A stretch of 34,360 nucleotides of DNA, from contig JACQQI010000024.1 of the NCBI GenBank assembly GCA_016207115.1, positions 1-34,360 of the forward strand. Reading direction: 5' to 3'. Below are positions 1,478 through 33,732 of this stretch, in pieces (position 1 is the first letter of the stretch; the number at the start of each line of letters is the position of its first letter). Made by a program: the position numbers and the translations under genes. The stretch is from Candidatus Nealsoniibacteriota bacterium. GTDB lineage: Bacteria > Patescibacteriota > Minisyncoccia > Minisyncoccales > GWA2-46-15. The notes beneath the pieces were generated by a model. The model was not told where the DNA came from. It made no database searches and was given only the letters and a program-made list of their open reading frames with translations.

Positions 1478-1550
1478 TTACCTTTTTGCGGAGCAAAAAA
1501 GCTAAGCTTTGTTTACCTTTTCGCGAAGCGAAAAGGCTAAGCTTTGCTTA
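1478..1550 (-). repeat. Two tandem hairpin repeats (AAGCTTAGCCTTTT..loop..AAAAGGTAA family)
   Basis: Minus strand: AAGCAAAGCTTAGCCTTTTCGCTTCGCGAAAAGGTAAACAAAGCTTAGCTTTTTTGCTCCGCAAAAAGGTAA directly before the CcdA-like ATG. Confidence 0.8.
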
Positions 1551-4860: not shown

Positions 4861-6843
4861 TTAAACCAGAAAAGCCACGATCAGAAGGGCGACGATGTTG
4901 ATAACCTTGATCATGGGATTTATGGCGGGCCCAGCCGTGTCTTTGTAGGGGTCGCCGACCGTGTCGCCGGTCACGGCCGCCTGATGGGCAAAAGAACCCT
5001 TGCCGCCGTAGTTGCCTTCTTCGATGTACTTTTTGGCGTTATCCCAGGCCGCTCCCCCGGAAGTCATGGAAATGGCCAGAAAGAGGCCGGTCAGAATGCT
5101 GCCCATCAAGACTCCGGCCAGGGCCAGCGGCCCCAGAAGAAAACCAATCAGGATCGGCGCCAAGACCGGCAAGAGAGTTGGGACGACCATTTCTTTCAGC
5201 GCGGCCTTGGTCACGATATCAACACACTTTCCGTACTCCGGCTTTTGCGTTCCCTCCATCAAGCCCGGAATTTCTTTGAATTGCCGACGAACTTCGTTAA
5301 CGACCTGACCCGCGGCCTTGCCCACGGCGAGCATGGCCAGAGAAGCAAAAAAGTAGGGGATGAGGCCGCCCAGGAAAAGCCCGACGATTACTTTCGGGTC
5401 GTCCAAAGAAAACTGGAAACGGCCGCCGGCCGCCAGCAGTTCCTGGGTGAAGCTGGCAAAAAGCACCAGGGCCGCCAATCCCGCCGAGGCAATGGCGTAG
5501 CCCTTGGTGACGGCTTTGGTCGTATTGCCCACCGCGTCTAAGGCATCGGTAACTTTCCGGACGTCTTCACCGGCACCCGACATCTCGGCCAAGCCGCCGG
5601 CATTGTCCACAATCGGCCCGAAAGCGTCAATGGCGATGATTAGACCCGTCAAAGAAAGCATGGCGACCGTGGCCAGGGCCACGCCGAAAATCCCGGCCAG
5701 CCAGAAACTGACCAGGATGCCCGAGGAAATTAAAATGGTCGGCAGGACGGTCGACTGCATGCCCACGGCTAAGCCGATGATGACGTTCGTCCCGTGACCG
5801 GTTTGAGACGAGGCGGCGATAGACCTAACCGGCGAGTGTTTTTTGGAAGTGAAGTACTCGGTGATGGCAAAGATTCCCGCGGTCACGACCAGGCCTACCA
5901 AAGAAGCCAAATAGAGCTTATTCGCCGAAAAGGGACTCAGCCGGCTGAACTTTTGGATAATCGGATAGAAGCCCAGGGCAGCGACTAAAGCGGAAACGAT
6001 CAGTCCTTGATAGAGAGCGGGCATGATTTCTTGGTTTCGACCCAGACGGACGAAAAAACTGCCGACGATCGAGGCGAGGATAGCTACCATCCCGAGGAAA
6101 AGAGGTAAAAGTACCAGGGGCGAGTCGGCCGAGACCAAGAGAGATCCGAGAATCATTGTCGAGATCAGAGCGATGACATAGGTTTCAAAAAGATCGGCGG
6201 CCATGCCGGCGCAATCACCCACGTTGTCGCCGACCTGATCGGCGATCACGGCCGGATTCCGAGGATCGTCTTCGGGAATGCCTTTTTCTACTTTACCGAC
6301 GATGTCGGCGCCGACGTCCGCGGCCTTGGTATAGATGCCGCCGCCCAGTCGGGCAAAAACAGAAATCAAGGAGCTGCCCAAGCCCAAGGCCACCAAGGCC
6401 TTCAAATCATTGGTCAAAAGATAGAACCCGGAAACGACCAGCAAGCCCAGCCCGACCACCAGAAAGCCGGTCACTGATCCGCCCTTGAAAGCCAGATCGA
6501 GAGCCGAGCTCAATCCTTTTTGAGCCGCCGCGGTTACCTTGTGATTGGCCTGAGTCGAAACGATCATACCCAAAAACCCGCAGAGGCCAGAGACAAAAGC
6601 CCCGAGCAGAAAAGCGAGTCCGGCCCGGAAACCCAAGACCAGAGACAAAAGAATGAAAAGAAAAGCGGCCACGGCCGCGATGGTTTTGCCCTGCCTCTGG
6701 AGATAGGAAAGAGCGCCCTGACGGATTCCAAGACTGATCTCGAGAGCCCGAGGCGAACCAGCGGGGGCCTCTCCGATCTTTTTGACCAAGAAGAAGACAA
6801 AGAGCAGGGCTAAAAGAGAAACGAGAATGGGAAAAAACAACAT
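4861..6843 (-). CDS. hppA: Membrane-bound proton-translocating pyrophosphatase
   Basis: [50 protein letters not shown] and [24 protein letters not shown]. Confidence 0.96.
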
Positions 6844-6860
6844 ATCGCTTCGCGTTATTA

Positions 6861-10750: not shown

Positions 10751-10786
10751 ATAACGAATACGATATATCGAGCTATCGCCCGCTAT
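10751..10786 (-). repeat. GATATATCG palindromic repeat, copy A
   Basis: Minus strand ATAGCGGGCGATAGCTCGATATATCGTATTCGTTAT; 14 bp upstream of tRNA-Arg. Confidence 0.85.
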
Positions 10787-13598: not shown

Positions 13599-14109
13599 AA
13601 CCCCCAGCGCGATTAAACATGCCGAACAACGGATTTTGGTTTTATTTGACGTCCAAAATCTCTACCATTCGGCCAAAAATCTCTACGGCGCCCGCGTCAA
13701 TTTCGCCAGCATCTTAAAAACGGCGGTGGCCCAAAGGAGATTGATTCGTGCCTTCGGCTATGTGGTTCGGACAAAAACGGGCGAAGAAAAGCCCTTTTTC
13801 GAAGCTCTGACCAAGCTGGGCATTGAGACCCGGGTCCGGGATTTACAAGAATTCTACGGCGGACTCAAAAAAGCGGATTGGGACGTGGGCATCGTCATTG
13901 ATGCCATCCGCAGCGTTCATAACTACGACGTCATTTGTCTTTGCTCCGGCGACGGCGACTTCATCCCTTTGCTCGAATATCTGGAGAACCAGGGTAAAAG
14001 GACTGAAGTCATTGCCTTCGGCCGCTCGGCTTCGGCCAAATTGAAAGAAATTGCCGATGAGTTTATCGACCTGGGCACTTCTCCAGAAACCTACTTGTTA
14101 AGAAAATAA
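13549..14109 (+). CDS. NYN domain (LabA/DUF88-like, PIN-like fold) putative ribonuclease
   Basis: RILVLFDVQNLYHSAKNLYG...ADWDVGIVIDAIRS...DVICLCSGDGDFIPLLEYLENQGKRTEVIAF. Start overlaps rpsO; could be 13564. Confidence 0.85.
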   Translation: MKKDIMKPSRESGWETKTPSAIKHAEQRILVLFDVQNLYHSAKNLYGARVNFASILKTAVAQRRLIRAFGYVVRTKTGEEKPFFEALTKLGIETRVRDLQEFYGGLKKADWDVGIVIDAIRSVHNYDVICLCSGDGDFIPLLEYLENQGKRTEVIAFGRSASAKLKEIADEFIDLGTSPETYLLRK

Positions 14110-14152
14110 GCAGGGCTTAGCTTTCTCGCTTCGCTCGAAAGTAAATTTAACA
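14110..14152 (+). repeat. Degenerate copy of the CTTAGC-hairpin repeat
   Basis: AAGCAGGGCTTAGCTTTCTCGCTTCGCTCGAAAGTAAATTTA upstream of pnp; resembles the 1478-1550 copies but diverged. Confidence 0.5.
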
Positions 14153-17724: not shown

Positions 17725-17761
17725 ATAGCGGGCGGAACGCCCGATATATCGTACTCGCTAT
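17725..17761 (+). repeat. GATATATCG palindromic repeat, copy B
   Basis: ATAGCGGGCGGAACGCCCGATATATCGTACTCGCTAT, between convergent 3' ends of the TraR/DksA-like and M23 genes. Confidence 0.87.
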
Positions 17762-19755: not shown

Positions 19756-19773
19756 CTCAAGACTTGTGGTAGA

Positions 19774-19815
19774 ATAAGCGAAGCTTAGCCTTTTTACTTT
19801 GTAAAAAGGTAAAAT
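19774..19815 (+). repeat. CTTAGCC-hairpin repeat upstream of the VirB6-like gene
   Basis: ATAAGCGAAGCTTAGCCTTTTTACTTTGTAAAAAGGTAAAAT; arms CCTTTTTAC/GTAAAAAGG. Confidence 0.8.
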
Positions 19816-27364: not shown

Positions 27365-28981
27365 ATGCACAAAGGCTTGGGTAAGAAAGTTTCAATCGTT
27401 CTCTTTGTCTTGTTGCTTTTGGGAATAGCCCAGGCGGTTTTAGCTATCGAAATCAGCTACCCCCAGATTCCCGGCGTGGAAGCGCCGCAGGATTTCTTAC
27501 CCAAGATTCAATCCGGCCAATATCCGGGCGAACAGGCTCTGCCGCTTTTCGTTAAATACCTCTACGCCCTCGGGCTGGTCGCCAGCACCGTGCTGACCGT
27601 CATCTCTCTCATCTACGGCGGCGTCCTCTACATTCTCTCCGGCTCAAATCCCGGGAAAATGATCGGCGCCAAAGATCAGATCACGACGGCTTTCTTAGGA
27701 CTGGGACTGCTCCTCCTGTCTTACCTCTTCTTGAATATTCTCAATCCCGACTTATTGGTAATGAAGCTGCCGTCGGTCAGTCGGCCCGTTTTTTCGCCGC
27801 CTCCCGATACCCCGCCGCCCGGAGAGGCCGTCTTGGTTTTCTGGGAATTGCCCCTGGGGACGATCTTCAACGACATTTCTAATATTTTCCCTCAGGTCAA
27901 ACCAGCCAGCCAGGACGTCAAAGACAAAGCGGACATCGCCAAACAAGCGTCTCAAGAGTTGGTCGATCTGCTCAACTCCTGTCAATGCCAAAACCTTTCC
28001 CCTCAGTGTTCGAGTCTGACCTGCTCGGCGCTCGCCTGTCTCGGCACGAGAAATAATCTCTGTCCGAACTTGAGCGTAATCGAAGCCAAAAAACAGGACC
28101 TGATGAATAAATTGGGAATTCTTAAAGTTTCCAGGAAAAACTTGGCCATCATCAAATTCAACCTGCAAAAAGAAACGAGCCGTCTCCAGGTGGCCGAGAC
28201 CCTGATGAAAAGCTGCACCTACGTGCCAATTGATTTAAATACGATGCTCGGCCTCAAACAAACGAGCCGGGTCGAAATCAAAAAGCCCTGGTCGGAAACC
28301 GACGCCAAAAACAATCCTTTGTCTTTCTATTGTCAAATGGATGAAGCGTTCGTGACGCAAACGATCTTTGATTGGCGGGAGATGATCGCCCAGCTGGAAT
28401 CGATACTGAACACCGATCCTGACGACATTCCTTTACCGCCGCCTTCTCCCGGCCCGCTGCCCACCGGTACGCCCGGACCCGGTCCGTCGCCGGTTCCCGG
28501 CTTCTCTTTTAACCTGCCTCTGTCCTGGACCTGCCTCACTGATATTTGCAATGTGCGGCGGAGCGTCTATTACTGTCACGAGGGATTAGATTTGTATGCC
28601 GCCGAAAATTCGCCCATCTATGCCGTGGCCGACGGAGAGATAGCGGGCTCGGGCGACTTCACCGCCGACTGTCCGCCCGGAGGCGCTTACGGTCGATGGG
28701 TCGCCGTTAAGCACCAAGTCGGCACTCAGGAAATGACCAGTTTCTATGGTCACCTAAATTCGGTGCTGGTGACTTCCGGCCGCGTCGCTCAGGGCCAAAT
28801 CATCGCCTACAGTGGCAACACCGGTAGTAGCACCGGGCCGCATCTGCATTTCAGCCTGACCGTTAATTTCGCCCCGGGTTGTTTGAATCGAGGTACTCCC
28901 TTAGATCCGCAAAAATGGCTACCGGCCATCGGTTGGTGTTCCGGCTTCAGCGGCACGCCCGATTGTTCTATTTGTCAGTAA
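27365..28981 (+). CDS. VirB2-like two-TM module fused to C-terminal M23 (LytM) peptidase
   Basis: Signal/TM start, KYLYALGLVASTVLTVISLIYGGVLYILSGSNPGKMIGAKDQITTAFLGLGLLLLSYLFLNILNPDLLVMKLP; C-terminal HEGLDLYAAENSPIYAVADGEI...FYGHL...GPHLHFSL. Confidence 0.85.
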   Translation: MHKGLGKKVSIVLFVLLLLGIAQAVLAIEISYPQIPGVEAPQDFLPKIQSGQYPGEQALPLFVKYLYALGLVASTVLTVISLIYGGVLYILSGSNPGKMIGAKDQITTAFLGLGLLLLSYLFLNILNPDLLVMKLPSVSRPVFSPPPDTPPPGEAVLVFWELPLGTIFNDISNIFPQVKPASQDVKDKADIAKQASQELVDLLNSCQCQNLSPQCSSLTCSALACLGTRNNLCPNLSVIEAKKQDLMNKLGILKVSRKNLAIIKFNLQKETSRLQVAETLMKSCTYVPIDLNTMLGLKQTSRVEIKKPWSETDAKNNPLSFYCQMDEAFVTQTIFDWREMIAQLESILNTDPDDIPLPPPSPGPLPTGTPGPGPSPVPGFSFNLPLSWTCLTDICNVRRSVYYCHEGLDLYAAENSPIYAVADGEIAGSGDFTADCPPGGAYGRWVAVKHQVGTQEMTSFYGHLNSVLVTSGRVAQGQIIAYSGNTGSSTGPHLHFSLTVNFAPGCLNRGTPLDPQKWLPAIGWCSGFSGTPDCSICQ

Positions 28982-29014
28982 GCGAAGCTTAGCCTTTTCG
29001 TAAACGAAAAGGTA
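28980..29014 (+). repeat. CTTAGCC-hairpin repeat upstream of the Cys-rich secreted protein
   Basis: AAGCGAAGCTTAGCCTTTTCGTAAACGAAAAGGTA; arms CCTTTTCGT/ACGAAAAGG. Confidence 0.85.
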
Positions 29015-32837: not shown

Positions 32838-33218
32838 CTATTTTTTAATAGCGGGCAAACAGCCCGATATATCGTTGGGCGTTATCAAATCGGCTTTTTT
32901 TAAGAAGAAAAGGATCATTTCGGCCGCCTCTCTCAGATCCTTTTTCTCCAGGTCTTTCCGAGCCGACAGGACCAGATCCCAACCGGGCTTGACGAGAAAC
33001 AGATTCGACCTCATCGCCTCTCTGAGTTTTCTTTTTATTCGATTGCGTTGACTGGCCCGGTTAAATGTTTTCTTGCTAGCCAGAAAGCCGAAACGACTGA
33101 AAGAATGATCATTGCCGACAAACTTTATGGAGAGAAACTGATTATTTTGACTTCGGCCATTTTTCAAGACGTGCGCGAAGTCGCGTTTTTGTCTTAAGCG
33201 ATGACGACTCGGCAGCAT
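32838..33218 (-). CDS. rnpA: Ribonuclease P protein component
   Basis: MLPSRHRLRQKRDFAHVLKNGR...FGFLASKKTFNRASQRNRIKRKLREAMR; between rpmH and yidC. Confidence 0.93.
   Translation of the reverse strand: MLPSRHRLRQKRDFAHVLKNGRSQNNQFLSIKFVGNDHSFSRFGFLASKKTFNRASQRNRIKRKLREAMRSNLFLVKPGWDLVLSARKDLEKKDLREAAEMILFFLKKADLITPNDISGCLPAIKK
32848..32885 (+). repeat. GATATATCG palindromic repeat, copy C (inside rnpA 3' end)
   Basis: ATAGCGGGCAAACAGCCCGATATATCGTTGGGCGTTAT. Confidence 0.87.
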
Positions 33219-33418: not shown

Positions 33419-33454
33419 ATAACGCAAAGAGATATATCGTGCTCTTCGTGACAT
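33419..33454 (+). repeat. GATATATCG palindromic repeat, copy E (diverged)
   Basis: ATAACGCAAAGAGATATATCGTGCTCTTCGTGACAT, 46 bp from rpmH start. Confidence 0.65.
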
Positions 33455-33659
33455 AAAGAGGCGCATCGAATCTCGTCCTTTGCAATAATTACTGCGCCTC
33501 GCCCCAACAAGATTAAAAATTGCTATTATTTCGGATCAGTTTTTCTGTTAATTTGACCTCGGCGCCATTGTCAACGATTATTCCACTCTTTGTCCACAAC
33601 TTGTTAAGACGGGGGGTGGGTTTGATCTCTTTTTGCCCTTTCTCGAGCCGAAAGATATA

Positions 33660-33703
33660 ATAACGAGCAGGAGCTCGATATATCGGGCAATCTTGCCCGC
33701 TAT
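33660..33703 (-). repeat. GATATATCG palindromic repeat, copy D1
   Basis: Minus strand ATAGCGGGCAAGATTGCCCGATATATCGAGCTCCTGCTCGTTAT. Confidence 0.87.
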
Positions 33704-33732
33704 GACGAATACGATATATCGCTTTGCGCTAT
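33702..33732 (-). repeat. GATATATCG palindromic repeat, copy D2
   Basis: Minus strand ATAGCGCAAAGCGATATATCGTATTCGTCAT, abutting D1, 21 bp before the dnaA start. Confidence 0.8.

What the first reader, a model, noticed from the sequence alone, without database searches (positions are those of the whole stretch)
33419..33732. Origin-proximal family of compound palindromes centred on GATATATCG
Six related 31-44 bp elements: A 10751-10786, B 17725-17761, C 32848-32885, E 33419-33454, D1 33660-33703, D2 33702-33732. Rough consensus ATAGCGGGC-n-GCCCGATATATCGT-n-CG(C/T)TAT: a central palindrome with small stem-loop arms and inverted ATAGC/GTTAT ends. Arm stems are conserved while loop lengths and arm sequences vary (GGGC/GCCC, GAGC/GCTC), suggesting selection on structure. 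Three copies lie in the 380-bp rpmH-dnaA intergenic region, D1 and D2 head to tail. A REP/MITE-like element or the binding site of an unknown origin-associated factor are both possible.
Basis: partly seen in the sequence, partly recalled or inferred. Interest (0 to 1): 0.85.

Follow-up and report, generated by a model that had tools for sequence, protein, structure and literature searches.

The report
Genome-wide mobile double-hairpin DNA repeats
The six palindromes near dnaA belong to a family of about 55 tiny (31-44 bp) jumping double-hairpin repeats spread over the whole genome of a Patescibacterium; they insert at the dinucleotide AT, duplicate it, and can land inside essential genes without breaking the reading frame, stop codon or start codon.

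Summary
The repeat family is real, but it is not an origin feature. The host genome (a 476-kb Patescibacterium, same genus as Ca. Wildermuthbacteria GWA2_46_15) holds 55 GATATATCG cores; the reversed control pattern has none. Congeners carry 18, 17, 18, 2 and 0 exact cores, and a covariance model finds relatives in a few other families of the order. Each element is two hairpins facing each other around a fixed core: AT-A[G/A]C(stem-loop)GATATATC(stem-loop)G[C/T]T-AT. Long-arm stems show many compensatory changes, loops are strand-polarised, and one long plus one short arm is the rule. Empty sites in congeners (Mur ligase, MnmA, penicillin-binding protein, Fmt, and the mnmA stop/start overlap) show insertion at YHAT|DR with an AT duplication. 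Insertions inside genes add a multiple of three bases (11 of 12); copy C forms the in-frame end of rnpA. Fourteen copies end exactly in a start codon (CTAT+G) of ordinary genes. In dnaA leaders, D2 is shared with one congener and decayed in another; three lack it. Best filed as a new short MITE/REP-like mobile palindrome behaving like Rickettsia palindromic elements and yeast mitochondrial GC clusters. No mobilising enzyme was found.

The parts
10751..10786 (-). Copy A: short arm left (CGAATACG), long arm right; intergenic between divergent genes, upstream of a tRNA gene
   Evidence: covariance model E 1.4e-16
17725..17761 (+). Copy B: best match to the family consensus; between two convergent genes
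   Evidence: covariance model E 6e-21; context
32848..32885 (+). Copy C: lies in frame at the 3' end of rnpA and encodes the RnpA tail ITPNDISGCLPAI
   Evidence: covariance model E 3e-15; translation; RNase P domain ends at residue 109 of 126
33419..33445 (-). Copy E: decayed partial copy in the rpmH-dnaA gap
   Evidence: core present; covariance model only E 0.55
33660..33703 (.). Copy D1: two long arms; lies directly after the GATATAAT motif upstream of dnaA
   Evidence: covariance model E 5e-14 / 1e-13 on the two strands; leader comparison
33702..33732 (.). Copy D2: two short arms, left end ATGAC; shares AT with D1; ends 21 nt before the dnaA GTG (33754); apparent ortholog in G002 and a decayed one in G005
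   Evidence: covariance model E 7e-5
6842..6858 (-). Solo single-hairpin unit AT-AACGCGAAGCGAT-AT; its inner AT plus the next G forms the predicted start codon of the gene at 4861-6843 (-)
   Evidence: listing; gene

Best explanation
These are short, non-autonomous mobile elements built as two hairpins in inverted orientation: AT-A[G/A]C-hairpin-GATATATC-hairpin-G[C/T]T-AT. Shown: they are dispersed genome-wide, vary between species, and occupy sites that are empty in congeners. Insertion adds the element plus one extra AT at a symmetric target of consensus YHAT|DR. Arm stems and strand-polarised loops are kept by compensatory change, which suggests that a folded single-stranded form (DNA or RNA) matters in their life cycle. 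Copies survive where they do no harm: inside genes they add a multiple of 3 bases and are read through as 11-13 residues; at overlapping stop/start codons the left end supplies TAA or TAG and the right end supplies ATG; in leaders they sit at start codons of genes that rarely show a Shine-Dalgarno motif. Inferred: an enzyme supplied in trans (an unidentified or since-lost transposase or recombinase) recognises the ends and hairpins and moves them. Inferred: the dnaA-leader copies are ordinary insertions, one of them old enough to be shared by descent among three species.
For: 55 cores against 0 in the reversed control; copy numbers 50, 2, 18, 17, 0, 18 within one genus. Covariation far above shuffles, polarised loops, long+short rule 76 of 97. 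Empty versus filled sites in Mur ligase, penicillin-binding protein, MnmA, Fmt, MFS gene and RecJ-like gene, and the near-identical mnmA stop/start junction. Net genic length a multiple of 3 in 11 of 12 against 24 of 85 elsewhere. Symmetric target: Y at -2 in 63 of 70 and R at +2 in 63 of 70, without flank covariation. Sporadic relatives in other families of the order.
Against: No transposase, recombinase or reverse transcriptase that tracks copy number was found. Arms are so diverse that 94 of 97 full elements are distinct, so recent bursts are not evident. Because AT is invariant at both ends, a true target duplication cannot be told from an element that carries its own terminal AT.
Confidence: 0.85

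Rival explanations
1. True REP/BIME elements moved by a RAYT-type Y1 (HUH) transposase acting on single-stranded hairpins: each arm is a REP-like unit (ATAR foot, mismatch, stem-loop) and the element is a compact REP-iREP pair.
For: Inverted pair of oriented hairpins with polarised loops; predicted stem with an R.A mismatch near its foot; tandem arrays; Y1 genes exist in all five congeners.
Against: No GTAG tag; no Y1 gene found in this genome, which has the most copies; none of the eight Y1 loci read carries the element, and several are flanked by other palindromes; the symmetric target with an AT duplication is not expected for IS200/IS605-type insertion.
Confidence: 0.3
2. MITE of a DDE transposon or a serine-recombinase element with a 2-bp AT crossover, moved as double-stranded DNA.
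For: Terminal inverted repeats ARCG...CGYT, dyad-symmetric target YHATDR and 2-bp AT duplication.
Against: DDE_Tnp_1 found only in G003 and resolvase only in G001, G002 and G004, not in this genome; it does not explain the fast-changing but structurally conserved, strand-polarised arms. Other DDE families were not searched.
Confidence: 0.35
3. Copy-and-paste through an RNA intermediate, as proposed for some mitochondrial hairpin elements.
For: Structure is conserved rather than sequence; many copies lie in transcribed regions.
Against: No RVT_1 reverse transcriptase in any of the six genomes.
Confidence: 0.07
4. Functional regulatory element or protein-binding site (promoter, RNA leader, chromosome organisation, or origin factor) spread and kept by selection rather than by mobility.
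For: 14 exact abutments with start codons; short arm faces gene starts (32 against 14) and co-directional copies run long arm first 25 of 34; D2 shared by descent in the dnaA leader with G002 and, decayed, G005.
Against: Many copies lie inside coding genes or between convergent genes; three congeners have no copy at dnaA; genic copies do not share the orientation bias (8 short-first, 4 long-first).
Confidence: 0.15

Closest known systems
Rickettsia palindromic elements (RPE; reviewed in PMC10969869)
   Same: Dispersed palindromes that also insert in frame inside protein-coding genes, adding a short peptide.
   Different: RPEs are about 150 bp; this family is 31-46 bp, with two separate hairpins, a fixed GATATATC core and an AT duplication, and lies in Patescibacteria. 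No sequence comparison with RPEs was made.
GC clusters (GC42) of yeast mitochondrial DNA (PMC4478555) and double-hairpin elements of fungal mitochondria (PMC2800124)
   Same: About 40 nt, palindromic, 2-bp flanking repeat (AG there, AT here), stems conserved while loops vary, merger and shuffling of units, no known enzyme.
   Different: Organelle genomes; different sequence and target dinucleotide; no evidence of common descent.
REP/BIME elements with RAYT transposases (PMC8266576, PMC3733652)
   Same: 20-50 nt hairpins, inverted pairs, tandem arrays, dispersed copies; some REPs are reported inside genes.
   Different: No GTAG or CGTC tag was seen; no RAYT found in the genome; symmetric target with AT duplication.
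Prokaryotic MITEs
   Same: Non-autonomous, terminal inverted repeats, short target duplication.
   Different: Much shorter, with fast-changing arms under structural constraint and no parent transposon known.

Membership tests
REP/BIME with RAYT | GTAG tetranucleotide at the foot of the hairpin | tested here: not met
   foot is ATAG/ATAA in nearly all arms
REP/BIME with RAYT | hairpins in inverted pairs and tandem arrays | tested here: met
   97 two-armed copies and head-to-tail arrays
REP/BIME with RAYT | a Y1 transposase gene flanked by the same repeat | tested here: not met
   no Y1 in this genome; eight congener Y1 loci carry no GATATATC
MITE | terminal inverted repeats | tested here: met
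   A[G/A]CG...CG[C/T]T in 97 copies
MITE | target-site duplication | tested here: met
   net insertion = element minus one AT at empty sites; AT is invariant, so a carried terminal AT is an equivalent reading
MITE | related autonomous transposon with the same ends | tested here: inconclusive
   only Y1, resolvase, DDE_Tnp_1 and RVT_1 were searched; none fits
Rickettsia palindromic element | in-frame insertion into protein-coding genes | tested here: met
   ten or more genes, net length multiple of 3 in 11 of 12
Rickettsia palindromic element | length about 100-150 bp | tested here: not met
   31-46 bp
Rickettsia palindromic element | sequence relationship to a Rickettsia family | not tested
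   no Rickettsia sequences were aligned
Replication-origin element | concentration at dnaA and conservation there across relatives | tested here: not met
   genome-wide copies; absent upstream of dnaA in 3 of 6 species

The most novel reading that the evidence does not exclude
The element may be a mobile cassette that is gene-neutral by construction and partly recruited as a start signal: one palindrome carries a stop codon at one end, an ATG-forming AT at the other, open frames in between and a -10-like core, so that insertion at ATGA junctions and start codons re-creates both signals and may give leaderless transcripts for essential genes such as frr, cysS and lysS.
Probability: 0.15. Interest if true: 0.8.

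Novelty: new variant of a known kind. Interest (0 to 1): 0.6.

Why it matters
Patescibacteria have very small genomes, yet this lineage carries dozens of mobile palindromes, some inside essential enzymes. I found no earlier description of such a family for this group in the papers searched. It would be a case, independent of Rickettsia, of mobile palindromes that spread into protein-coding genes. Empty and filled sites in sister species make target choice, tolerance and protein effects directly testable. It also gives a clear rule (AT duplication at YHAT|DR, stop and start rebuilt) for how a repeat can enter compact operons. It warns annotators that tails such as ITPNDISGCLPAI on RnpA are repeat-derived.

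Tried and rejected
Origin-specific role: rejected on genome-wide counts and absence in three congeners. TA duplication (IS630/mariner type): rejected because the net insertion is element minus 2 (a multiple of 3), which fits AT and not TA. Longer target duplications: none above chance. Flanks as part of the stem: rejected, no covariation. RAYT partner: none at the element. Reverse transcriptase: none. Rfam: only tRNAs in the window. Broad phylum sample: 1 weak hit in 388 other genomes, but that run scored only 17 candidates per genome, so its sensitivity is low. The viral contig scan gave no answer twice. Gene starts come from a simple coding-score caller of my own. My solo/double sorting was faulty, and only its listed sequences were used. 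One case first counted as genic (L080:3977) is probably two adjacent genes read as one; it is the exception to the multiple-of-3 rule.

Full report
What was checked. The window is contig 17 of a 476-kb, 87% complete genome. A covariance model built from 52 elements recovers A, B, C and D1 strongly, D2 moderately and E only marginally. E is a decayed half. A further single-hairpin unit lies at 6842-6858.

Copy number. GATATATCG occurs 55 times forward and 53 reverse in the genome, 0 times for the reversed control, and about 0.6 times would be expected per strand. Exact CGATATATCG counts are 50 here, 2, 18, 17, 0 and 18 in five congeners, and 0-3 in 94 other members of the order. With the covariance model, degenerate copies also appear: 111 matches in this genome (both strands counted), 15, 50, 58, 1 and 41 in congeners, and 15, 11, 4, 2 and 1 in five genomes of other families. 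I read loci of three of those outgroup genomes: the ends and two-hairpin plan are the same (the core too in G029 and G009; GGTATATC in G018), and one locus holds four head-to-tail copies with a 39-bp period.

Anatomy. I extracted 104 copies, 97 with both ends. Nearly every element is AT-A[G/A]C-arm-GATATATC-arm-G[C/T]T-AT. Each arm is a hairpin. Short arms are CG-AGTA-CG, CG-ATTA-CG or CGC-GNA-GCG; long arms have stems of about 4-8 bp. Among 79 distinct long arms, pairs 3, 4 and 5 are Watson-Crick in 74, 71 and 74 cases against shuffled maxima of 56, 57 and 62. Loops read from the outside inward are mostly AGTA, GAA, AAA, ATTA, GGA or GTA, so the two arms are oriented units facing each other. 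One long plus one short arm is found in 76 of 97 against a shuffled mean of 48.7 and maximum of 66. The same arm sequences recur in up to four species in different combinations. DNA folding supports hairpins in copies C and D1 and in the other example copies tested; copy A folds no better than its shuffles.

Insertion sites. Several copies lie in frame inside conserved genes: GlmS (two in tandem), MnmA, a DHH-family exonuclease, a penicillin-binding protein and PheT in G005; Fmt in G001; a beta-lactamase-fold hydrolase in G003; a Mur ligase and an MFS/NUDIX gene here. Copy C forms the last residues of RnpA (ITPNDISGCLPAI). Net inserted length is a multiple of 3 in 11 of 12 genic copies versus 24 of 85 others (binomial about 8e-6). 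Congeners show the empty sites. For example, the Mur ligase reads GTC TAT AAA (empty, G002) versus GTC TAT AGC...TGC TAT AAG (filled), and the penicillin-binding protein reads ATC ATT GAC versus ATT ATA ACG...GCT ATC GAC. At the mnmA start, G005 has TTACAGCAAATGATGACG and this genome has TTACAGCAAAT[AACGAGTACGATATATCGCTTCGCGTT]ATGATAACG. There the upstream frame's TGA stop is replaced by TAA from the element, and ATG is re-formed at its right end. The target is symmetric: Y at -2 and R at +2 in 63 of 70 untandemed copies each, with no covariation between the flanks.

Gene starts. Fourteen element ends coincide exactly with the ATG of ordinary genes, among them ribosome recycling factor, LysS, GreA, PilM, TatD, CysS, Tgt and MnmA. 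In 12 of the 13 cases counted with one long and one short arm, the short arm is next to the ATG. Co-directional copies run long arm first in 25 of 34 (p 0.009). With my crude start calls, only 7 of 58 ATG genes have a Shine-Dalgarno-like 4-mer, against 4 after shuffling. This would explain why insertion at AT|G is tolerated. Whether the elements also act as start signals is open.

dnaA leader. Copies D1 and D2 lie just after GATATAAT, a motif also present upstream of dnaA in the three congeners without the element. G002 has one copy 19 nt before dnaA whose left end (ATGGC) resembles D2's ATGAC. G005 has a decayed copy beginning ATGG at the same place. G001, G003 and G004 have none. D2 is therefore probably an old shared insertion and D1 a later one. 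This does not support an origin function, although a leader role for D2 is not excluded.

Mobiliser. Y1_Tnp genes occur in all five congeners but not in this genome, and the eight loci I read carry no GATATATC element; several are flanked by other palindromes. Resolvase is found in G001, G002 and G004 only, DDE_Tnp_1 in G003 only, and RVT_1 in none. No searched enzyme tracks copy number. The mobiliser may be in the missing 13% of this genome, belong to a family I did not search, or be lost.

Comparison with the literature. Rickettsia palindromic elements insert in frame in genes but are about 150 bp (PMC10969869). GC42 of yeast mitochondria is 42 nt, palindromic, flanked by a 2-bp AG repeat, conserved in stems and variable in loops (PMC4478555). 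Double-hairpin elements are known from fungal mitochondria (PMC2800124). REPs carry GTAG and are linked to RAYTs, and can lie inside genes (PMC8266576, PMC3733652). The present family works like these but fails the GTAG and RAYT tests, so I file it as a new short mobile palindrome, MITE/REP-like, with an unknown mobiliser. Searches of the paper library for this host group with palindrome or MITE terms found no description; that library is incomplete.

Noticed in passing
window 1478-1547, 14103-14145, 19773-19815, 28979-29000: A second dispersed hairpin repeat (AAGC-NNA-GCTTAG-CC...GG) also occurs in several other loci and in congeners; G002 appears to have such a repeat at the rnpA end where this genome has copy C.
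   Followed up: partly
L035:724-756, L038:about 1725-1776, L120:2343-2376: In three loci of two species a single unit of the first family (ATARCG...CGATAT) is fused directly to the second family (ATAAGCARAGCTT...), suggesting merger or shuffling of repeat units.
   Followed up: no
L057:about 2246-2267 (G005 glmS): Next to the tandem pair in GlmS there is a further insertion, AATCCTGAGCGCAAGTCGAAGG (peptide NPERKSK), absent in the 96% identical G002 protein; it looks like another repeat.
   Followed up: no
L165, dnaA N-terminus of G003: The dnaA leader or N-terminus of G003 holds a 24-bp in-frame tandem repeat (ATGACACCTAAACTAACAGGTGAA) just before the usual start.
   Followed up: no
L088, L089, L090: Congener Y1 transposase genes are flanked by their own palindromes (for example ACGTGGGAGGTCCGACCTCCCACG), so other REP-like systems exist in this genus.
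   Followed up: no
window 33590-33598 and congener loci L162, L164-L166: DnaA-box-like TTGTCCACA / TTATCCACA / TTATTCACA lie upstream of dnaA in five of six species, so the rpmH-dnaA gap may hold the origin independently of the repeats.
   Followed up: partly
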